This document shows, one piece after another, positions 9,191 through 60,915 of a stretch of 64,000 bases of DNA (position 1 is its first letter; each line of letters begins with the position of its first letter). Both the position numbers and the translations under genes were made by a program. Location: the NCBI RefSeq assembly GCF_022213955.1, contig NZ_JAKNTW010000003.1:62001-126000 (forward strand), in the 5' to 3' direction. The notes under the pieces were generated by a model, which saw only the letters and a program-made list of their open reading frames with translations, was not told the origin of the DNA and did not search any database. Origin of the DNA: Dolomitihabitans soli (GTDB lineage: Bacteria; Actinomycetota; Actinomycetes; Streptosporangiales; Streptosporangiaceae).

Positions 9191-9787
9191 TTATCGCCAG
9201 GTGCGGTTGTTGTTGCGCTCTTCTTTGGCTCGCCATGCGTCTTCGAGGGTGACATGGATGAGGTTGGCGATGGCGGCCAGGAGGATCGTGATGCGGGCAC
9301 ATGTGTCGGCGATGGCGACGGTGCGTCCGTGGGGATCGGTGGGGTTGCCGTTGCGTTTGCGGATTGCGCGGAACAGTTCGCCGGTCTCGTGCCCAAGACG
9401 CAGACACAGGTCGGCGAGGCCGAGCGTGGCCAGGTCGGTCCCGGCCGCGTAGTCCTGGACGCCGCCGAGTGAGCTGCCAAGACCGATTACACGGCCGGTT
9501 TCATGAAGTGCTCTGGCGCGGACCGCGTCCGTGAGGATGACGTTGGTGCGGTTGGCGATCGAGGCGAGCAAGATCGTCACGTCGACGCACTCTTCGGCGA
9601 TCACGGTGGTGGGACCGGAGGGGTTGGAACTGAACGCTCCGGCGGCGTCGAACAGCTCACCGACTTCCTCGCCGAGTTTGAGGCACTGGGAGTCCAAGCC
9701 GAGGCCTGACAGGCCGCGCTCGATCTCCATCTTCGCCACGTACTCCTGGAGATCGGCGAGTGAGGCTTCCTGGGGCAACGGTTCCAT
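9191..9787 (-). CDS. Tandem MazG-like nucleotide pyrophosphohydrolase domain protein
   Basis: The protein has 198 residues and reads as two copies of a MazG-like helical unit. Unit 1 (residues 10-95) has the metal-binding pattern EEVGELF (E40, E41, E44) and EECVDV (E65, E66, D69). Unit 2 (residues 122-193) has the same order of segments, but the acids are degraded: HETGELF, then DTCARI in place of ExxD. If active, it would hydrolyse NTP-type substrates to the monophosphate and PPi using unit 1. The ATG at 9787 follows AGGGA; the same frame stays open far upstream, but only as a shadow of the next gene. It starts 59 bases after the winged-helix gene and is probably in its operon. Confidence 0.75.
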   Translation of the reverse strand: MEPLPQEASLADLQEYVAKMEIERGLSGLGLDSQCLKLGEEVGELFDAAGAFSSNPSGPTTVIAEECVDVTILLASIANRTNVILTDAVRARALHETGRVIGLGSSLGGVQDYAAGTDLATLGLADLCLRLGHETGELFRAIRKRNGNPTDPHGRTVAIADTCARITILLAAIANLIHVTLEDAWRAKEERNNNRTWR

Positions 9788-9846
9788 CGGGCCATCCCTG
9801 GTGTGTCTGAGAAGAGGTTGCGACGCTAGCGGCCGGTGATGGGCCC

Positions 9847-11058
9847 CTAGCCGCCGGAGTTGGTGACGGCGAGCTGCCCGACGCTGACGTCGGAGACCTG
9901 TGCGGTGCCGGATGCCCATCCCTGGCGGAGCGTGCCGGTCAGGGCCTCGGCCCGCCGGGCGATCGTCTTCCGGTCGGCCGGGCTGACCCGGCCCCGGACG
10001 AGTGAGACCTCGACGCTGCGGCAGGTGGGGTTCCATTCCCAGGTGCCGACGATCCGACCGTTGATCATGATTCCGGGTAAGGCCTCGCCGATCTGGTTGA
10101 ACGCCCGGCGTGGGGGGAGGTCGCCAAGGTAGCGTCCGCGAGTCTGGAAGTAGCTCTTGAGCGCGGTGTCCTCGTGCGCGAGCAGATTCACTCCGGTCGC
10201 CGTCGGGGTGGAGGCCTGGAACTCCTCGAACCGGTCGGCGAACATCAGGCAGTCCGCTTGTGCCCAGGGTGTACGGATCCGGACGAGCTCGCGGCCGGAG
10301 GCGGCGAGTCCGGTGAGGATGTCGGTGGCCGACAGCCCGGACCACCAGGTGGCGTCGCGCACGGTGGCGGGCCCGTACCGGTCGAGGTAGGCGGTGACGA
10401 GGGCGGTGATCGCGGCGTCGCGATCCAGGCCGAGGTTCAAGCCGGGGATCGAGGAGGCCACCGCGAAGGTCCTCTTCTCCCGGTTCCACACCCTAGTGGC
10501 GTTGCGGTAGACGATCTGGCCGCCCTCCCACGCCCTTTTGATCGCCAGCCGTCCAGTCGGGACGCCTACACCATCCTGGGCCAGGCGCTGTTCGATGGCC
10601 CGGTGACCGAGCGGGCCATCGGCCAGCAACGCCAGGAGCCGGTCTACGGCGCCGGCGATGGTCTGTTCGGACAGGCCGGCCTTTACGATGGCGCGGCGAG
10701 CGTCGCGGTCGCGGAACCGCAGTGTGGCGGCGTGCGCGATCGCGGCGAGGCCCAGCGGGAGAGCATGGAGGGTCTTGCGCATGCACCGGACGGTCAGCAG
10801 CGTGTCCTGGACCGGCGCGGTGAACAGGCTGGTGGGCACAGCAGCGCCGGTGCTGCGGGACGCAATGATCCCGTAGGGCGAAGGGAGCCGGGCGGCGTGC
10901 AGACCGAGCGCGGCGTCGGAAATCTGCGCGACCGTTTCCAGCCGAGTGTGGTCAGCCAAGCCCTGCCGGGCGAGCAGGTGCTCCCACAGAGCGGCCGCTT
11001 TGGCCTCGCTCAGAGTGTAGGTGGCCATTCCTGGGAGCAGTGAGGAGGACGGGGCCAC
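9847..11058 (-). CDS. Winged-helix DNA-binding protein, AlkZ/YcaQ (HTH_42) family
   Basis: A 403-residue protein of the HTH_42 family, which includes the DNA glycosylases AlkZ and AlkX and has three tandem winged-helix domains. The family motif that follows the first helices normally reads LQAQ, with two glutamines used in catalysis; here it is LGLHAARLPSPYG (residues 51-63). Both glutamines are replaced (H54, A56), so glycosylase activity of the AlkZ kind is doubtful. Other family blocks are kept (RCMRKTLHALP, TWEWNPT). The GTG at 11058 is used; ATG at 11028 is an alternative start. It is probably a DNA-binding or damage-related protein, upstream of the MazG-like gene. Confidence 0.75.
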   Translation of the reverse strand: MAPSSSLLPGMATYTLSEAKAAALWEHLLARQGLADHTRLETVAQISDAALGLHAARLPSPYGIIASRSTGAAVPTSLFTAPVQDTLLTVRCMRKTLHALPLGLAAIAHAATLRFRDRDARRAIVKAGLSEQTIAGAVDRLLALLADGPLGHRAIEQRLAQDGVGVPTGRLAIKRAWEGGQIVYRNATRVWNREKRTFAVASSIPGLNLGLDRDAAITALVTAYLDRYGPATVRDATWWSGLSATDILTGLAASGRELVRIRTPWAQADCLMFADRFEEFQASTPTATGVNLLAHEDTALKSYFQTRGRYLGDLPPRRAFNQIGEALPGIMINGRIVGTWEWNPTCRSVEVSLVRGRVSPADRKTIARRAEALTGTLRQGWASGTAQVSDVSVGQLAVTNSGG

Positions 11059-11366
11059 ATGGGGAGCTTAGATGAGACGAGACTTCAGGGGCGGAGCATT
11101 GGCCGAGTTCGCCAGCCGGGCCGAACCACATCTTGCCCACACCGACGTCACCGGGCCTCGATCCCCGCGGCCAAAGGTGCGGGCGTTATTTCCTAGGCAG
11201 GACGGTAGGAGCGGCCCATCACCATGTCTCAGTCTCCACCTGATTTACCGGCATCACCACGCTCGCGAACCGCTCGATGCTGGACCAGCCACACATACCG
11301 GACAGGTTGTCAGCACCGGAGAATGCGAATGGAAGGGCGAACTCGGCTCGGGAGGATGTATCAGTC
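11059..11366. other. Intergenic stretch, nothing recognised
   Basis: About 308 bases between the start of the winged-helix gene and the stop of the radical-SAM gene, both on the minus strand. It must hold the promoter of the winged-helix gene, but I see no clear consensus, repeat or small gene. Confidence 0.4.
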
Positions 11367-12680
11367 TTATGGGCCCCAGGTGGCGTCGACGAAGGTGCGG
11401 AGCCGGAGGTAGGAGGATTCGACCTCGGCCCACTGGTTGTCGTCGCCCCACCAGCGCAGAGTGTTGTGGTGGATGTGGAATCTCGACCAGTCGCCGTCCC
11501 AGCCCGGCTGCTGGTGGGTGCCGGAAATCCCGTACTTGTCGGGGTCGGCGTACACCTGTGTGCCGGGTAACGGTACGAACCTGAACAGGGCAACCCGCGA
11601 CAGGTTCGGAGCAAGCTCCTCCAGTAGCGACAGGGTTTCGTCGGTCGTCTGTTCGGTCTCGCCGGGGTAGCCGTGGATGACGAACACCTTCGCGCCGATC
11701 CCCGCGTCCGCGGTCGCCAGGATCGCGTCGCGGATCTGGGCACGGGTGATTCGCTTGCGCATCGCCGTCAGCAGCAGCTCGCTGCCGGACTCCATTCCGT
11801 ACTTGACCTCGATGCATCCCGAGGCGGCCATCTTCTTCAGCAACGGGCCATCGACGGTGTCGACCCGCGACAGGGCTGACCATCGCAGTTTCAGGTCGGC
11901 GATCGCCTCGCAGATCTCTCCAACCTTGCCCTTGTGGACGATGAAGTTGTCGTCCACGATCGCGAACCCCTCGATCCCGTAGGCGTCGATCAGGTGGATG
12001 AGCTCGCGACGCGCGGAGGCCGCTCCCCGATACTGGAGCCGGGACTGAGCGGCGGCGCAGTAGGTGCATGGGAACGGGCAGCCACGCGAGAACATCACGT
12101 GCGCCATCGTCGTGTCAGTGCCGGCGAGCCGGTCGGACAGCACGACGTGCTCGCGGGGGAGCAGGTGCCGGGCGGGCAGCGGCAACTCGTCGATGTTGCG
12201 CATCAAGACCCGGCTCGGCCCCTGCACGATCTGCCCGTCCCCGTTCGGACAGTAGATGCCGGGGATTCCGGTGAAGTCCCGGCCGCCGTCCACGCCGCGA
12301 TCCAGCAGCTGCAGAATGATCTCCTCCGATTCGCCGTCAGCGACGACGTGCGCAGCGAAATCGGTCAGGGATTCGATCGGGTAGAAGTTAGCGTGCACCC
12401 CGCCTACCATGATCAGCGCATGGTCGGCGAATGTGGAGGTCCGGCGCGCCGTGAGCATCAGCCCGTAGGTCGCCGACGAGGCGAGGCTGAATCCGACCGC
12501 GTCGAACCCGCTCAGCTCCAGTCGGGTCCGGGACGGCGTGACCGCCTCGATCACGACCTCGTGGCCGCCCTGCTCGATCACCGCTGCCAGATACAGCACC
12601 CCGAACGGCGGGAACTCCTTACGAGCCTCCTTGTAGCGGGCCATGTCGTACACCTCGGGGTACAGCAACACCACGCGCAT
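11367..12680 (-). CDS. B12-binding radical SAM protein
   Basis: A 437-residue class B-like radical SAM enzyme. The N-terminal 150 residues form a cobalamin-binding-type Rossmann domain (VVLLYPEVYD, PPFGVLYLAAVIEQGGHEV, IMVGGVHANFYP). The iron-sulfur motif is CPFPCTYC (Cys201, Cys205, Cys208, CX3CX2C). SAM-binding strands follow (FAIVDDNF, VKYGMESGSE, VFVIHGYPGET). The ATG at 12680 has AAAGAGGTGG upstream; an earlier in-frame start would overlap the kinase gene by 80 bases. It lies 16 bases downstream of the thymidylate-kinase-like gene, so the two are co-transcribed. The substrate is unknown. Relatives methylate unreactive carbons or build tetrapyrroles and natural products. Confidence 0.87.
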   Translation of the reverse strand: MRVVLLYPEVYDMARYKEARKEFPPFGVLYLAAVIEQGGHEVVIEAVTPSRTRLELSGFDAVGFSLASSATYGLMLTARRTSTFADHALIMVGGVHANFYPIESLTDFAAHVVADGESEEIILQLLDRGVDGGRDFTGIPGIYCPNGDGQIVQGPSRVLMRNIDELPLPARHLLPREHVVLSDRLAGTDTTMAHVMFSRGCPFPCTYCAAAQSRLQYRGAASARRELIHLIDAYGIEGFAIVDDNFIVHKGKVGEICEAIADLKLRWSALSRVDTVDGPLLKKMAASGCIEVKYGMESGSELLLTAMRKRITRAQIRDAILATADAGIGAKVFVIHGYPGETEQTTDETLSLLEELAPNLSRVALFRFVPLPGTQVYADPDKYGISGTHQQPGWDGDWSRFHIHHNTLRWWGDDNQWAEVESSYLRLRTFVDATWGP

Positions 12681-12696
12681 GACACCCACCTCTTTC

Positions 12697-13389
12697 TCAG
12701 CCGCCCCGCGAGAGCGCGAGAAGTTCGCCGACGAGAGCCAGGACGGTGACGGTGACCTGCTCCGCGGTGCGGTCACCGATGTCCAGGCTGATCACTGGGT
12801 AGCCGAGCGATGTCAGGAGGCCGGCGGCCTGCTCGTACAGGCCGGCCTCGGTAGACGCCGCAGCGACGCCGCCCTCGTGGAAGCGGCTGTAGGTGCCCCG
12901 TCGGGCAGCCCGTTCCCTGCAGGTGGCCGGATCACCGGTCAGCAGGACCGCAAGGTCCGGGGCGAACATGTGCCGGTAGAGCGTCGTGATGAATGCGGGG
13001 TCCGCGCCATCCATCTGGTCCAGGACCAGCGCGGTCGGCACGTACCGATCACACACCACAACCCGCCCGGCCTCCAGCGCCGGGAGGATGACCTCGTCCT
13101 GGTGATGGTGCCGGTCGGCCGCCATCAGGAACGTCAGCGCCAGGCCGTGCAGCTCATGCGTCGCCGATCGCGCCAGCCTCCCCATCGGCGAATGCGACGG
13201 CTGCCCCGTGGCCACCACCGCCGCCCCACGCTGGACGAGCATGTCGGCGAGCAGGCGGCAGACCTCGCTCTTGCCAACCCCCGACGGCCCGTCCACCACA
13301 ACCAGGAGACCCGGCCGACCGTGCAGGGGTGCCCTCGGCGCCGAAGGATCAGTGCTGAACCTCGGAGCCGAGCTGGAGGGCGAGGACAT
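12697..13389 (-). CDS. Thymidylate-kinase-like nucleotide kinase
   Basis: A 230-residue P-loop kinase of the dTMP kinase family. P-loop DGPSGVGKS is at residues 33-41. The DR[YF] motif is VVVCDRYVPTALVLDQM and the lid arginines are CRERAARRGTYSRF. The start at 13389 follows AAGGAGT seven bases upstream; the frame is open 56 codons further, but that part reads as promoter DNA. An ordinary Tmk phosphorylates dTMP. This copy is tied to a radical SAM gene and a GntR/PP2C pair, so it may phosphorylate a modified nucleotide or another small substrate. It diverges from the GntR gene over an inverted-repeat promoter. Confidence 0.8.
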   Translation of the reverse strand: MSSPSSSAPRFSTDPSAPRAPLHGRPGLLVVVDGPSGVGKSEVCRLLADMLVQRGAAVVATGQPSHSPMGRLARSATHELHGLALTFLMAADRHHHQDEVILPALEAGRVVVCDRYVPTALVLDQMDGADPAFITTLYRHMFAPDLAVLLTGDPATCRERAARRGTYSRFHEGGVAAASTEAGLYEQAAGLLTSLGYPVISLDIGDRTAEQVTVTVLALVGELLALSRGG

Positions 13390-13517
13390 CGAGCGACTCC
13401 TTCGCACGAAGGAAGCGGCGCGTGCACTACATGACGTTCGGACCGGAAGCGCATATCCAAATGAACGATGTCCCCCCGCAGGGTGTCGGCGGGCCGGCTT
13501 CCCTGCAGGGAGCGATA

Positions 13518-13569
13518 GTCTTGGGACAATAGTCAGCCTGTACCACGATCCTGTCAATTATCCCAAGAC
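13518..13569. promoter_or_regulatory. Inverted-repeat operator and promoter of the divergent GntR / kinase units
   Basis: GTCTTGGGACAAT (13518-13530) and the reverse complement of GTCTTGGGATAAT (13557-13569) form a 13-bp inverted repeat with one mismatch. Between them, on the minus strand, TTGACA (13552-13557) lies 17 bases from GACTAT (13529-13534), a good promoter for the kinase gene. The arms overlap the -10 and flank the -35 box, as expected for a repressor site. The GntR protein encoded at 13590 is the obvious candidate. Confidence 0.6.
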
Positions 13570-13589
13570 AATTATTGAAATGAGGCTGC

Positions 13590-14408
13590 GTGGTGACCGT
13601 GCACTCGCGCTACTTGGATATCGCCGCCCAGATCAGGGCGCGGATTGAGGCCAGCGAGTGGGAGCCGGGAGCCAAGCTTCCGCGCCTGGACGACTTCGCG
13701 GTGGAGTATGCCGCAAACCGGGACACGATCGGCAGGGCGATCGGAGTTCTGGAGTCGGAGGGTTTCGTCTGGGCGGTGCAGGGGCGGGGGATCATCGTCC
13801 GGCACGGCATGATGCGGCTGCGCAGGCCACGGGGGAATCTGGTGAAGCGGAACGTCGCCACTGACAGCCCCGGCTACTCCTTCCCCTCGGCATCCGGCCA
13901 GGAGGTGTGGAAGCATCACATCCAGCCCCTCGCGTCCCTCGAACCGCTGACCGACCCGCGAATCGCGAAACTGCTGTGCGTCCCGGTGGGCAGTTCGGTG
14001 ATGCGCCGTTTCCGGGTCACCGGGCCCGAGTCGGAACCTCCGTTCCAGATCAACATTTCGTGGATTCACCCCCGTGGTGTCGCTGATGCCCCCGAGGTCG
14101 ATTCTCAGGCCCCCGGACCGGGGGACTGGCTATACCGGCTGGAGATGTCCGGTCATTGGCCCATCAGCTGGATGGAGATCCACAGAGCTCGGATGCCGAC
14201 CAAAGATGAAGCCGGCCTGCTGGAGATTCCGACCAGTCTGCCGGTGTTGGAGATCGTGCGGGTGGGAACGTCGGGGGGCGATGGAAATGCCATTGAGGTG
14301 ACCGAGTACATCGTGGCCAGTGATCGGGTCGAAACCGTACACGTACTGCACCGCGACGATTCCGCACAAGATCCATGGTCTGACGACATCGGCACGGCAG
14401 GCGCATGA
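13590..14408 (+). CDS. GntR family regulator with UTRA domain
   Basis: A 272-residue protein with an N-terminal GntR winged helix (YLDIAAQIRARIEASEWEPG, LDDFAVEYAANRDTIGRAI, VQGRGIIV; residues 5-70). A C-terminal HutC/UTRA-type ligand domain follows, about residues 90-255 (PVGSSVMRRFRVTG, LEIVRVGTSGGDGNAIEVTE). Tandem GTG codons at 13590 and 13593 can serve as starts after a weak TGAGG. The gene overlaps the PP2C gene by four bases (ATGA), so the two are made together. It probably represses the divergent kinase/radical-SAM unit. Confidence 0.85.
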   Translation: MVTVHSRYLDIAAQIRARIEASEWEPGAKLPRLDDFAVEYAANRDTIGRAIGVLESEGFVWAVQGRGIIVRHGMMRLRRPRGNLVKRNVATDSPGYSFPSASGQEVWKHHIQPLASLEPLTDPRIAKLLCVPVGSSVMRRFRVTGPESEPPFQINISWIHPRGVADAPEVDSQAPGPGDWLYRLEMSGHWPISWMEIHRARMPTKDEAGLLEIPTSLPVLEIVRVGTSGGDGNAIEVTEYIVASDRVETVHVLHRDDSAQDPWSDDIGTAGA

Positions 14409-15145
14409 CCATGCCCCTCACTGTTGAGGCTGCTGCCCGTACCCACATCGGGCTTGTGCGCCGACGTAACGAGGACGCCGTCTACGCGGGCCAATCGTTG
14501 TTCGCAGTCGCCGATGGTCTCGGCGGTCACATCGCCGGCGACATCGCCAGCGCCACCGTGATCGAAGCGCTGCAAGCTCACGACCGTCAGGCGGACCCGG
14601 CGGACCTCCCCGTAATCCTCGGACGAGCCGTCCACGCCGCGAATGAGGCCCTGCGGCGCAGGATCGAAAGAGAACCAGACCTGGTGGGCATGGGCACGAC
14701 ACTGGTGGCGATGCTGTGGTCCGAGTCGGCGGCGGTCGTGGCGAATGTGGGCGACTCCCGCGCCTACCTGCTGCGCAATACCGGCTCCACCGGTAGCGGG
14801 ACTTCGCAGATCGTCCAGATCACCGAGGATCACACTTACGGGAATCTGGTGGCCGACGCCGCCGGCGTGCCGAACCTGCCCGCGCGCATAGCCCGCTTCC
14901 TCGACGGCCGGGCCGATGGACGCTCACCCGACCTCACCACCCGGGCACTCCGTCCCGGTGACCGGTTCCTGCTGTGTTCGGACGGGCTGAGCGCGGTAGC
15001 GCCACACGAGCTCATCCGAGACATTTTGAGCTCATCCAGCGATCCGGGAGAAACAGCCGATCGCCTTATCGCGCTGGCCACCGATTACGGCGGTCCGGAC
15101 AACATCACCGTGATCGTCGCCGACGTACGGGAAGTTCACCCCTAG
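14405..15145 (+). CDS. PP2C-type serine/threonine protein phosphatase
   Basis: A 246-residue protein with the complete PP2C motif series for two metal ions: GLVRRRNEDAVY near residue 18, FAVADGLGGHIAGD near 34, MGTTLVAMLW near 98, VANVGDSRAYLLR near 115, FLLCSDGLSAV near 190 and YGGPDNITVIVADV at the end. The protein has no membrane segment or sensor domain, so it is a soluble phosphatase of the PstP/Stp type. It is translationally coupled to the GntR gene. A matching kinase is not in the cluster. This unusual pairing suggests that a signalling step controls the neighbouring kinase/radical-SAM unit. Confidence 0.9.
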   Translation: MTMPLTVEAAARTHIGLVRRRNEDAVYAGQSLFAVADGLGGHIAGDIASATVIEALQAHDRQADPADLPVILGRAVHAANEALRRRIEREPDLVGMGTTLVAMLWSESAAVVANVGDSRAYLLRNTGSTGSGTSQIVQITEDHTYGNLVADAAGVPNLPARIARFLDGRADGRSPDLTTRALRPGDRFLLCSDGLSAVAPHELIRDILSSSSDPGETADRLIALATDYGGPDNITVIVADVREVHP

Positions 15146-58740: not shown

Positions 58741-60915
58741 ATGCGCCCTGTCACCGAACACCGTTCACCACGATCCGTTCTCGCCGCGGTCTTGGCCGTG
58801 GTCGCTGTCACCGCGTCCGCTCTCGTCGCACCCCACGCCGCACCGGCGTCGGCGGCCGACAGCGGCAGGCTGCGACTGGTGGCGTTATCGGCCCGGCCCG
58901 CACTGGTGACGGCGGACGACGTGCTCGTCACCGCGACGGTGCCGCGCGGCAAGCCGTTGGACGCGGTGCGGTTCACGCTCAACGGCGCGGACATCACCGG
59001 CTCCTTCCGGGCCGACGCGAACGCGCACGCCCTCACCGGCCTGGTTGATCGGCTGCGCCCCGGTCGCAACCACCTTGTCGCGACCGCCGGGCCGCTGCGC
59101 GACCAGCTCCTCCTGACGAACCATCCGGCCACCGGGCCGGTGATCAGCGGTCCGCAGGAGACGCCGTACGTCTGCACCACTGATCGGTTCCGTCTGGTCG
59201 ACGGCGGCACGCTCGGCGATCCGCTCGACGCCGACTGCTCGGTGGCCACCCGGGTCGACTACGCGTACCGATCGACCGCCGGCAAGACCATGCCACTGCC
59301 GGATCCGGCGGCCAGACCCGACGACCTCGCCTGGACGACGACCATCACCGGCGAGACGGTCCCGTTCCTCATCCGGATCGAAACCGGCACGCTCAACCGG
59401 TCGATCTACCAGATCTCCATGCTGCACGACCCGGCAACGGAAGAACCCACGTTCCACCGGCACAGCCCCGGCTGGAACGACCGGCTCATCTACACCTTCG
59501 GCGGCGGCTGCCGGAGCGGCTGGTACACCCAAGGCACGAACACCGGCGGCGTGCTGGACCCCCAGATGCTCGCTCGCGGCTACGCGGTCGCGTCGGCGTC
59601 GCTGAACGTCTTCGGCAACAACTGCAACGACCTGCTCGCGGCCGAGACCATGATGATGGTCAAGGAACGGTTCGCCGAGCATTACGGCGATCCGCTGTTC
59701 ACCATCGGCTGGGGTTCTTCGGGAGGCTCCTACCAGAGCCACCAGATCGGGGACAACTACCCGGGTCTGCTGGACGGCATCGTGGTCGGGCGGACGTTTC
59801 CTGACGTCGCGTCCGCGACGAACATCACGCTGTTCGACGCCCGGTTGCTAGAGCACTATTTCACCGAGGTCGCGCCGGGCGCGTTCAGCCAGGAGGAGCA
59901 GCGCCAGGTCTCCGGCTTCCTGCGGTGGGAGAGCATCCGCAACCTCAGCGGCGGGGCGAAACGGCTGGACCCGGTCGCTGAGTTCCCCGACGAGTTGCCC
60001 GTGGAACTGCGCTACCACCCGCAGGCCAACCCCGGTGGAGCGCGCGCGGACGTCTACGACCACACCGCGAACGTCTACGGACGTGATCCGGCCACCGGGT
60101 TCGCCCGGCGGCCGCTGGACAACGTGGGGGTGCAGTACGGGTTGGCCGCGCTGAACTCGGGCGCGATCACCACACAGCAGTTCCTCGACCTCAACGAGGG
60201 CATCGGGGGCCTGGACCTCGACGCCAAGCCGACGACGCAGCGCACCGCGGCTGACCCGATCGCGAGGAACGCCGCCTACCGCACCGGACGTATTCTCTTC
60301 GGCGGGGCGGGCCTCTCCGGCACGCCGATCATCGACTACCGGTCGTACTCCGATGACGCCGCGAACGGCGACATCCACATGATGACGCACGGTTACGCCA
60401 CCCGGGCGCGGCTGGAGGCGGCGAACGGCGACGCGGACAACCAGGTCTTCCTCGTGGAGGACAGCCGTTTCGGCGGGTTCAGCCTGACCAGCCCGACCCT
60501 GCGGTACGCCCTGACGAGCATGGAGGAGTGGCTGACCGCGATCGTGGGCGATGACTCGCGGCTGCCCGCGCACCAAAAGGCGGTGCGGAACAAGCCTGGT
60601 GATCTCACCGACGCCTGCTGGAGCCGTGACGCCGAACCTCGCAAGATCGTTCAACGGCTCACTGCGGACAATGCCGGAGAGTGCGGACGGCTGTTCCCCG
60701 CCTACTCCACCCCACGACTGATAGCCGGCGCTCCGCTGACCGACGACGTGGTGACCTGCCACCGCGAGGCCATCGACTGGAGCGGCTACTCGGTTGCCTT
60801 CAGCCCGGCCGAGCGCCGTCGGCTGGTGGAAATCTTCCCATCGGGCGTGTGCGACTGGACGAAACCCGGAGCCGGGCAGCGTCCGTTGCGCGACACCTGG
60901 CAGACGTTCAACTGA
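58741..60915 (+). CDS. Secreted DUF6351 family protein
   Basis: A 724-residue secreted protein with a signal peptide in the first 40 residues (SVLAAVLAVVAVTASALVAP). Beyond it are an immunoglobulin-like start (LRLVALSARPALVTADDVLV) and an alpha/beta-hydrolase-like core with YTFGGGCRSGWYTQG and GWGSSGGSYQSHQI (a Gly-x-Ser-x-Gly-like turn). DUF6351 has no assigned activity that I know. ATG at 58741 fits the GGATGG ribosome site. The operon position between two secreted glycan enzymes suggests a carbohydrate esterase; that is inference. Confidence 0.75.
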   Translation: MRPVTEHRSPRSVLAAVLAVVAVTASALVAPHAAPASAADSGRLRLVALSARPALVTADDVLVTATVPRGKPLDAVRFTLNGADITGSFRADANAHALTGLVDRLRPGRNHLVATAGPLRDQLLLTNHPATGPVISGPQETPYVCTTDRFRLVDGGTLGDPLDADCSVATRVDYAYRSTAGKTMPLPDPAARPDDLAWTTTITGETVPFLIRIETGTLNRSIYQISMLHDPATEEPTFHRHSPGWNDRLIYTFGGGCRSGWYTQGTNTGGVLDPQMLARGYAVASASLNVFGNNCNDLLAAETMMMVKERFAEHYGDPLFTIGWGSSGGSYQSHQIGDNYPGLLDGIVVGRTFPDVASATNITLFDARLLEHYFTEVAPGAFSQEEQRQVSGFLRWESIRNLSGGAKRLDPVAEFPDELPVELRYHPQANPGGARADVYDHTANVYGRDPATGFARRPLDNVGVQYGLAALNSGAITTQQFLDLNEGIGGLDLDAKPTTQRTAADPIARNAAYRTGRILFGGAGLSGTPIIDYRSYSDDAANGDIHMMTHGYATRARLEAANGDADNQVFLVEDSRFGGFSLTSPTLRYALTSMEEWLTAIVGDDSRLPAHQKAVRNKPGDLTDACWSRDAEPRKIVQRLTADNAGECGRLFPAYSTPRLIAGAPLTDDVVTCHREAIDWSGYSVAFSPAERRRLVEIFPSGVCDWTKPGAGQRPLRDTWQTFN

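What the first reader, a model, noticed from the sequence alone, without database searches (positions are those of the whole stretch)
9191..15145. A regulated nucleotide-kinase/radical-SAM/phosphatase cluster with no known pathway
A GntR-PP2C pair and a thymidylate-kinase-like/B12-radical-SAM pair share one inverted-repeat promoter. A winged-helix DNA-binding protein and a tandem MazG-like protein follow on the same strand. Nucleotide phosphorylation, radical chemistry, NTP hydrolysis, DNA binding and protein dephosphorylation in one place suggest either a modified-nucleotide pathway or a stress or defence system. I know of no described system with this set.
Basis: inference. Interest (0 to 1): 0.68.

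Follow-up and report, generated by a model that had tools for sequence, protein, structure and literature searches.

The report
Mobile modified-nucleotide cassette with DNA glycosylase
A small, patchily distributed gene cassette, also found in a Streptomyces phage and in plasmids, seems to make an unusual DNA building block inside the cell while carrying its own clean-up enzymes, and may be an undescribed weapon in the conflict between bacteria and mobile DNA.

Summary
Window 9191-13389 (-) holds a TMK-like kinase, a B12-type radical SAM enzyme, an AlkZ-like DNA glycosylase and a MazG-like protein. This set recurs in distant actinobacteria. A second clade of the enzyme (about 30% identical) has the same job list filled by other families: HhH-GPD glycosylase, TMK kinase, and NUDIX, CYTH or MazG-like hydrolase; one member has a uracil-DNA-glycosylase-family protein plus MazG. 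Over 63 tabulated loci (19 + 44) a glycosylase-family gene is adjacent in 59, a triphosphate-hydrolase-family gene in 60, a kinase in 52. The second form lies in Streptomyces phage SF3, other IMG/VR contigs and Streptomyces plasmids. Replacement of families by others of like function points to one pathway: hydrolase, radical SAM enzyme and kinase make a modified (deoxy)nucleotide; a glycosylase clears it from DNA. Use against phages or rival elements is inferred, not shown. GntR-PP2C with its inverted repeat is a separate locus, conserved in relatives lacking the cassette. No description was found in the paper listings searched; PADLOC's candidate PDC-M51 is the nearest, weakly.

The parts
12697..13389 (-). 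TMK-like nucleotide kinase, 230 aa from an ATG (start inferred; the frame is open further upstream)
   Evidence: PF02223 5.5e-24; P-loop Gly/Lys and DRY residues invariant in 16 aligned rows; the genome has a separate, better TMK match elsewhere, 161.5 bits against 85.9 here
11367..12683 (-). B12-binding-domain radical SAM enzyme, 438 aa
   Evidence: PF04055 7.5e-17, PF02310 6.8e-10; the three CxxxCxxC cysteines invariant; model pLDDT 84.5 with MgmA, TsrM, AprD4 and OxsB among its fold neighbours
9847..11028 (-). AlkZ-like DNA glycosylase (ATG start; a GTG at 11058 is possible)
   Evidence: PF06224 1.8e-32; clade profile finds only AlkZ 5uuj in the PDB at E <= 0.001, 6.1e-11; catalytic-motif place reads HAAR
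9191..9787 (-). tandem MazG-like protein; by eye repeat 1 keeps EExxE/ExxD, repeat 2 has lost ExxD
   Evidence: MazG-like PHROG 2.9e-5, Pfam MazG only 0.014, under cut-off; single-domain MazG proteins in the same place in relatives
13515..13572 (.). inverted repeat (22-nt arms, 14-nt gap); judged the GntR gene's own operator, not part of the cassette
   Evidence: conserved before GntR in L146 and L147, which lack the kinase
13590..14408 (+). GntR/UTRA regulator; neighbour, not part of the cassette
   Evidence: PF00392, PF07702; conserved with PP2C without the cassette
14405..15145 (+). PP2C-type phosphatase; neighbour, not part of the cassette
   Evidence: PF00481 1e-15

Best explanation
The four genes at 9191-13389 (-) are a transferable cassette for an intracellular modified (deoxy)nucleotide. 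Proposed order: the MazG-like enzyme (elsewhere NUDIX or CYTH) cuts a (d)NTP to the monophosphate and/or destroys the modified triphosphate; the B12-type radical SAM enzyme alters base or sugar; the TMK-like kinase (elsewhere cytidylate-kinase-like) re-phosphorylates the product, and the cell's diphosphate kinase finishes the triphosphate. The product is toxic or miscoding for DNA synthesis; the glycosylase (AlkZ-like here; HhH-GPD or UDG-family elsewhere) removes it from the carrier's own DNA. The likeliest use is against phages or rival mobile elements, in the manner of viperin but with other chemistry and with built-in self-protection. Shown: gene content, co-conservation, replacement by other families, presence on a phage and on plasmids. 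Inferred: reaction order, product, toxicity, role.
For: Partners within 3.6 kb of the enzyme (labels). Clade A: AlkZ-like 17 of 19; MazG-like 14 + NUDIX 3 of 19; TMK 9 + cytidylate-kinase-like 4 of 19. Clade B: HhH-GPD 41 + UDG 1 of 44; TMK 39 of 44; NUDIX 29 + MazG-like 2 + CYTH without either 12 of 44. On the enzyme tree the fewest changes are 6 for hydrolase type, 3 for glycosylase type (L068's deoxyribosyltransferase/MGMT set counted as a type), 2 for kinase type. Control: of 55 other B12-type radical SAM loci from the same scan, 0 match the AlkZ, HhH, MazG or NUDIX queries and 2 the kinase queries. Family assignments. Mobile carriage: the full unit in phage SF3; 9 IMG/VR contigs with the enzyme, SF3 included; 13 plasmid records with the enzyme, and the full unit in 5 of the 5 of these 13 that I opened. 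The genome keeps a separate, better-matching TMK.
Against: No biochemistry or phage test exists. Kinase and hydrolase in one operon could serve repair instead. The AlkZ-like proteins lack the second catalytic residue of characterised relatives, so excision is unproven for clade A. No TMK or cytidylate-kinase match in 11 of 63 loci (in L069 the contig ends first, and L068 has a weak TMK-like protein). The HhH-GPD call rests on profiles: phage gp35 and L045 have no Pfam hit. 'MazG' is under Pfam's cut-off in the window, L041 and L167. ABC-type ATPase genes lie within the fetched flanks of four loci (cluster 4: L038, L039, L047, L054), an MFS gene beside L041 and ABC genes beside L140. PADLOC hits are partial. 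The SF3 paper calls the phage virulent in its title. Defence-island enrichment was not tested. AprD4, the best PDB sequence hit, has a B12-like domain but is recalled as not using B12.
Confidence: 0.55

Rival explanations
1. A DNA and nucleotide-pool repair cassette: hydrolase and glycosylase remove damaged nucleotides, the radical SAM enzyme reverses a lesion, the kinase salvages the product.
For: Glycosylases and NUDIX/MazG are house-cleaning families (recalled); L068 adds an MGMT-type DNA-binding domain (6.3e-6, 26.4 bits, just under Pfam's 27) and a nucleoside-deoxyribosyltransferase-type protein; L131 has a UDG-family protein + MazG and no kinase match.
Against: A kinase is odd for clean-up; sporadic distribution (clade A profile at E <= 1e-90 only in the own genome of 396 phylum-wide; clade B at E <= 1e-80 in 13 of 394 class-wide) and phage/plasmid carriage suit an accessory function better.
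Confidence: 0.2
2. A biosynthetic cluster for an exported nucleoside antibiotic with self-resistance enzymes, like albucidin/oxetanocin chemistry plus AlkZ-type protection.
For: AlkZ-like proteins protect producers of genotoxins (PMC9040887, abstract and passages). OxsB acts on dAMP/dADP/dATP and AlbB is proposed to act on deoxyadenosine; a thymidylate kinase is listed as gene 10 of the albucidin BAC, albA being gene 15 (PMC7074753, parts 1-2 of 4 and passages; the outcome of deleting genes 1-13 was not in the parts I read). L140 lies beside ABC transporter genes and another radical SAM gene; L041 beside an MFS gene.
Against: Outside the unit no gene family is shared by more than 7 of the 21 loci, and the most shared ones read as XRE-type regulators; complete unit in a phage.
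Confidence: 0.15
3. A hypermodified-DNA pathway: the modified dNTP replaces a normal base in phage or host DNA, and the glycosylase attacks DNA lacking or bearing a modification.
For: dNMP kinases and MazG-type enzymes serve base-replacement pathways in phages (recalled); carriage in phage SF3.
Against: In SF3 the unit is beside an annotated integrase rather than shown among replication genes, and it stands alone in chromosomes; a glycosylase against one's own modified base would be self-defeating.
Confidence: 0.1

Closest known systems
Viperin / prokaryotic viperins (pVips, SAND)
   Same: Radical SAM enzyme thought to make an altered nucleotide; nucleotide kinase partners are recalled for viperin (CMPK2)
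   Different: No viperin model among the PADLOC hits; this enzyme has a B12-type domain; glycosylase and hydrolase partners are not part of viperin systems (recalled)
PADLOC candidate PDC-M51 (PDC-M51A + PDC-M51B)
   Same: Best PADLOC hits of the window's radical SAM enzyme and kinase are the two halves of this candidate (9e-10 and 1.3e-8); likewise clade B L045 (1e-4 and 2.5e-9)
   Different: Matches cover about half (M51A) and two thirds (M51B) of the models; none of the glycosylases or hydrolases scanned hit a PDC-M51 model (the clade B NUDIX hit PDC-S07, 1e-7). That it is a two-gene candidate is read from the names; I saw no paper on it
OxsB/OxsA oxetanocin and AlbB albucidin pathways
   Same: B12-type radical SAM enzymes on deoxyadenosine compounds; OxsB is a fold neighbour (TM 0.65)
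   Different: OxsB is not among the PDB sequence hits; OxsA is an HD phosphohydrolase, absent from the window unit (an HD gene does lie near L041)
AlkZ/AZL self-resistance glycosylases
   Same: Same Pfam family; only PDB sequence match at E <= 0.001 is AlkZ
   Different: Motif HAAR, not (Q/H)-aliphatic-Q; sits in a nucleotide cassette
Streptomyces phage SF3 gp35-gp38
   Same: Complete form B: HhH-GPD, radical SAM, TMK, NUDIX
   Different: Other glycosylase and hydrolase families and other gene order than the window; the phage paper's table lists HhH-GPD (3.71e-07), TMPK and Nudix and leaves gp36 unassigned (PMC5336643, passages)

Membership tests
Viperin/pVip | match to a viperin-family model | tested here: not met
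   Only PDC-M51A is listed for the radical SAM protein in PADLOC at E <= 0.1; that PADLOC holds viperin models is recalled
Viperin/pVip | makes ddh-nucleotides | not testable with these tools
   needs biochemistry
PADLOC PDC-M51 | both proteins match the two models over most of their length | tested here: not met
   35.9 bits over 181-382 of 420 and 32.8 bits over 4-135 of 191; PADLOC's own cut-offs were not shown
B12-type radical SAM enzymes | B12-binding plus radical SAM domains with CxxxCxxC | tested here: met
   use of cobalamin itself not testable
NCBIfam radical SAM equivalogs (ApyD, PhpK, BchE, AprD4 and others) | score above the curated cut-off | tested here: not met
   best is ApyD, 168.4 bits against 750; 25 of 26 matches shown, none over its cut-off
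dTMP kinase (TIGR00041) | score above the curated cut-off | tested here: not met
   82.1 against 83.25 bits
AlkZ/HTH_42 glycosylases | PF06224 family | tested here: met
   113.7 bits, cut-off 25.9; AlkZ 5uuj 6.1e-11
AlkZ/HTH_42 glycosylases | catalytic motif (Q/H)-aliphatic-Q, Q-aliphatic-D or H-aliphatic-(S/T)(D/E) | tested here: not met
   HAAR in 15 of 17 clade A loci with an AlkZ-like gene, HSAR in L066, not found in L070; own paralogue L005 has QAQ; motifs from PMC9040887
HhH-GPD glycosylases (form B partner) | HhH-GPD similarity with the catalytic Asp | tested here: met
   profile against AlkA 7.4e-7, Asp aligned in 2jhj and invariant in 9 rows; single sequences mostly miss Pfam: 2 of 7 at E <= 10, best 9.1e-4; phage gp35 none
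MazG | Pfam MazG cut-off | tested here: inconclusive
   window protein 16.1 bits against 22; same-place L039 passes, 32 against 22

The most novel reading that the evidence does not exclude
A previously undescribed class of poison-and-antidote immunity built from small molecules: a B12-type radical SAM enzyme and a kinase put a poisoned deoxynucleotide into the cell's pool, phage or plasmid replication takes it up, and the carrier survives because a dedicated DNA glycosylase and a triphosphate hydrolase remove it from its own DNA and pool. The antidote slots are filled by any enzyme family that does the job.
Probability: 0.33. Interest if true: 0.92.

Novelty: new variant of a known kind. Interest (0 to 1): 0.72.

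Why it matters
As far as I recall, radical SAM enzymes that make antiviral nucleotides are known only from the viperin family. A second, chemically different lineage, paired with its own DNA glycosylase and nucleotide hydrolase and carried by phages and plasmids, would give a new source of nucleotide analogues and a testable case of genome self-protection by base excision inside a mobile cassette. It would also give a joint function to genes now annotated piecemeal as radical SAM protein, dTMP kinase, NUDIX and hypothetical protein.

Tried and rejected
GntR-PP2C as part of the system: rejected. Against that rejection, GntR-family genes also lie near the unit in two clade B loci (L046 29%, L055 26% identical) and a 94-aa 35% match in L038; I take these for chance in genomes rich in GntR genes, untested. 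Viperin membership: not met. A specific known radical SAM equivalog: none over cut-off. Clade A in viral contigs: none (32 stretches matched, no relative). Plasmid and phage searches with the window enzyme: 15 plasmid records, 2 phage records (both SF3), all under 60% identity; of the 6 plasmid regions opened from that search, 2 hold form B, 2 other radical SAM genes, 2 carried no annotation and show other radical SAM genes by my gene prediction. The fold search placed the enzyme among B12-type radical SAM proteins without singling out a substrate. No tRNA in the window to suggest an integration site. The sigma-70 scan found nothing. The DNA phosphorothioate paper was unrelated (PMC10853773, passages). 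Paper searches for this gene set gave no description (listings and abstract starts only, apart from the papers named). One search listed 10 of 14 papers with PADLOC candidate terms; none opened. Not done: defence-island enrichment, a second structure job, a genome survey outside Actinomycetota apart, opening 8 of the 13 plasmid records.
Full report
What is there. On the minus strand at 9191-13389 lie, in order of transcription, a thymidylate-kinase-like kinase, a B12-type radical SAM enzyme, an AlkZ-like DNA glycosylase and a tandem MazG-like protein; divergently lie GntR and PP2C. The genome has 10.8 Mb in 81 contigs and is the only one of its genus held. It has a better TMK match elsewhere (161.5 bits against 85.9), so the kinase here is probably an extra.

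GntR-PP2C is a separate locus. Of 100 genomes searched, 9 besides the own one have a GntR match at E <= 1e-25; the four at 82-85% identity (L146-L149) have PP2C at 64-67% right downstream, and none shows the kinase or radical SAM gene within about 1.5 kb. None of these four genomes is among the 44 of 297 with a radical SAM match. The inverted repeat (18 of 22 pairs; best of 100 shuffles 16) is conserved before GntR in L146 and L147; L148 and L149 lack both the DNA-binding half of GntR and the repeat arms. I take the repeat for the GntR operator. It may act on the cassette in this genome, but as adjacency, not as a conserved link. GntR-family genes near the unit in L046, L055 and L038 are the one sign the other way.

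Clade A, the window's form. The order-wide search found 44 of 297 genomes at E <= 1e-20, 6 of them (own included) with an enzyme at 59% identity or more; 15 weaker matches came without a locus and were not examined. AlkZ-like proteins are adjacent in 17 of 19 (not L041, L068), MazG-like in 14 (one convergent, L041, under Pfam's cut-off), NUDIX in 3, TMK-like kinase in 9 and a cytidylate-kinase-like protein in 4 (PF13189, 5e-12 in L063). L068 differs: MOSC + MGMT-type DNA-binding domain (26.4 bits, cut-off 27), nucleoside-deoxyribosyltransferase-type protein (PF05014, 2.1e-8), then a weak TMK-like protein (0.013, under cut-off).

Clade B. A second radical SAM clade, about 30% identical, has HhH-GPD, radical SAM, TMK, then NUDIX. 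The HhH-GPD call rests on profile comparison (AlkA, 7.4e-7) with an invariant Asp aligned to that of 2jhj; single proteins mostly miss Pfam (2 of 7). Among 44 loci: HhH-GPD 41, UDG 1 (L131; PF03167 2.5e-17), 2 cut off by a contig end (L160, L178); TMK 39; NUDIX 29, MazG-like 2 (L131; and plasmid L167, so annotated in the record, with PRA-PH just over and MazG under Pfam's cut-offs), CYTH without either 12 (Pfam-confirmed in the 4 scanned, the others by tblastn), none 1 (L175). L050 and L052 have both NUDIX and CYTH. Dropped as the same loci: L057, L058, L114-L117, L156, L158, L163, L173. Left out by oversight: L017 and L019, both with HhH, TMK and NUDIX. Near-identical loci (L135/L157, L043/L044, L169/L170, L130/L159) were kept, and several loci were found by searching phage and plasmid collections, so counts are neither independent events nor frequencies. 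The partner queries come from these loci themselves.

Replacement. On a tree of the 63 enzymes (quick method) the fewest changes are 6 for hydrolase type, 3 for glycosylase, 2 for kinase, loci without a partner left out and L068's set counted as a glycosylase type; L131 sits on a long branch. Plasmid L167 is the plainest case: HhH, radical SAM and TMK as in its neighbours, MazG-like in the NUDIX place. Clades A and B are each supported (100 and 99) but not shown to be sisters: L027, L028 and L035, without a kinase match in their 1.5-kb flanks, group with B. The same partner jobs may thus have been recruited twice. Among 55 other radical SAM loci, none matched the AlkZ, HhH, MazG or NUDIX queries and two matched the kinase queries; this control lacked UDG, CYTH and cytidylate kinase queries and can miss distant partners. 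Outside the unit no gene family is shared by more than 7 of the 21 loci compared; gene calls there are my own script's.

Mobility. Form B is complete in Streptomyces phage SF3, gp35-gp38, next to an annotated integrase. The phage paper's table gives HhH-GPD, TMPK and Nudix for gp35, gp37, gp38, nothing for gp36; its title calls the phages virulent (PMC5336643, listing and passages). IMG/VR gave 9 contigs including SF3; L157 and L158 carry the same unit. By my reading of predicted proteins, an integrase or recombinase gene lies within the fetched stretch in L156-L159, L162 and L164. Plasmids: 13 records with the enzyme at E <= 1e-40; I opened 5, all with HhH, radical SAM and TMK, and NUDIX (4) or MazG-like (1). 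Clade A was not found in viral contigs. Clade A profile at E <= 1e-90: own genome only of 396 phylum-wide; clade B at E <= 1e-80: 13 of 394 class-wide.

Active sites. The CxxxCxxC cysteines are invariant in 20 rows. Kinase P-loop and DRY residues are invariant in 16 rows. The AlkZ-like proteins have HAAR in 15 of 17 loci, HSAR in L066, and no readable motif in L070, whose sequence holds undetermined bases; aligned with AlkZ, GLHAAR falls on GVQAQV; the own-genome paralogue has QAQ. Known motifs are (Q/H)-aliphatic-Q, Q-aliphatic-D and H-aliphatic-(S/T)(D/E) (PMC9040887, passages). So His is kept at the first place and the second catalytic residue is gone, almost uniformly: either an altered mechanism or a lesion-binding role.

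Mechanism. MazG, NUDIX and CYTH proteins are unrelated but can act on triphosphates; AlkZ, HhH-GPD and UDG proteins are unrelated but handle wrong bases in DNA; the two kinase families phosphorylate nucleotides (family knowledge, partly recalled). Their interchange beside one kind of radical SAM enzyme says that the enzyme's product passes through a nucleotide and ends, wanted or not, in DNA. The order hydrolase, radical SAM, kinase copies the MazZ-PurZ logic of 2-aminoadenine phages (recalled). A glycosylase against the product suggests that the product harms the carrier, which with phage and plasmid carriage and no widely shared exporter leads to an intracellular weapon. A repair cassette, an exported nucleoside and hypermodified DNA remain open.

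Known or not. The best PADLOC hits of the window's enzyme and kinase are the two halves of candidate PDC-M51, as are those of L045 and L039, at partial coverage. Searches for the gene set among 5.39 million open papers listed no description; most subscription papers and all bioRxiv preprints are not held.

Noticed in passing
window 13515-15145; L146-L149: GntR, PP2C and a 22-nt inverted repeat form their own conserved locus in relatives without the cassette; the pairing of a UTRA-type GntR with a PP2C phosphatase is itself unexplained.
   Followed up: partly
L138:4890-8263 (phage SF3): The phage paper's unassigned gp36 is a B12-type radical SAM protein in a complete form B cassette.
   Followed up: yes
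window 9847-11028: AlkZ-like subfamily with HAAR at the catalytic motif, in 15 of 17 clade A loci with the gene.
   Followed up: partly
L068:8347-10041: MAG labelled Verrucomicrobiales: radical SAM enzyme followed by MOSC + MGMT-type domain, a nucleoside-deoxyribosyltransferase-type protein and a weakly TMK-like protein.
   Followed up: partly
window 9191-9787: Tandem MazG-like protein, about 90-118 aa and single-domain in the other clade A loci read; by eye only repeat 1 keeps the metal-binding motif.
   Followed up: no
window 11059-11366: 312 nt between the radical SAM and AlkZ matches here, against 69-158 nt in 15 of the other 16 clade A loci with both (603 in L070, which holds undetermined bases).
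   Followed up: no
L041:7194-8093: Clade A enzyme without AlkZ, convergent with a weak MazG-like and an HD-domain gene.
   Followed up: no
window 58879-60915: DUF6351 tannase-like protein of unknown function (1e-238), next to a GH106 rhamnosidase-type gene.
   Followed up: no
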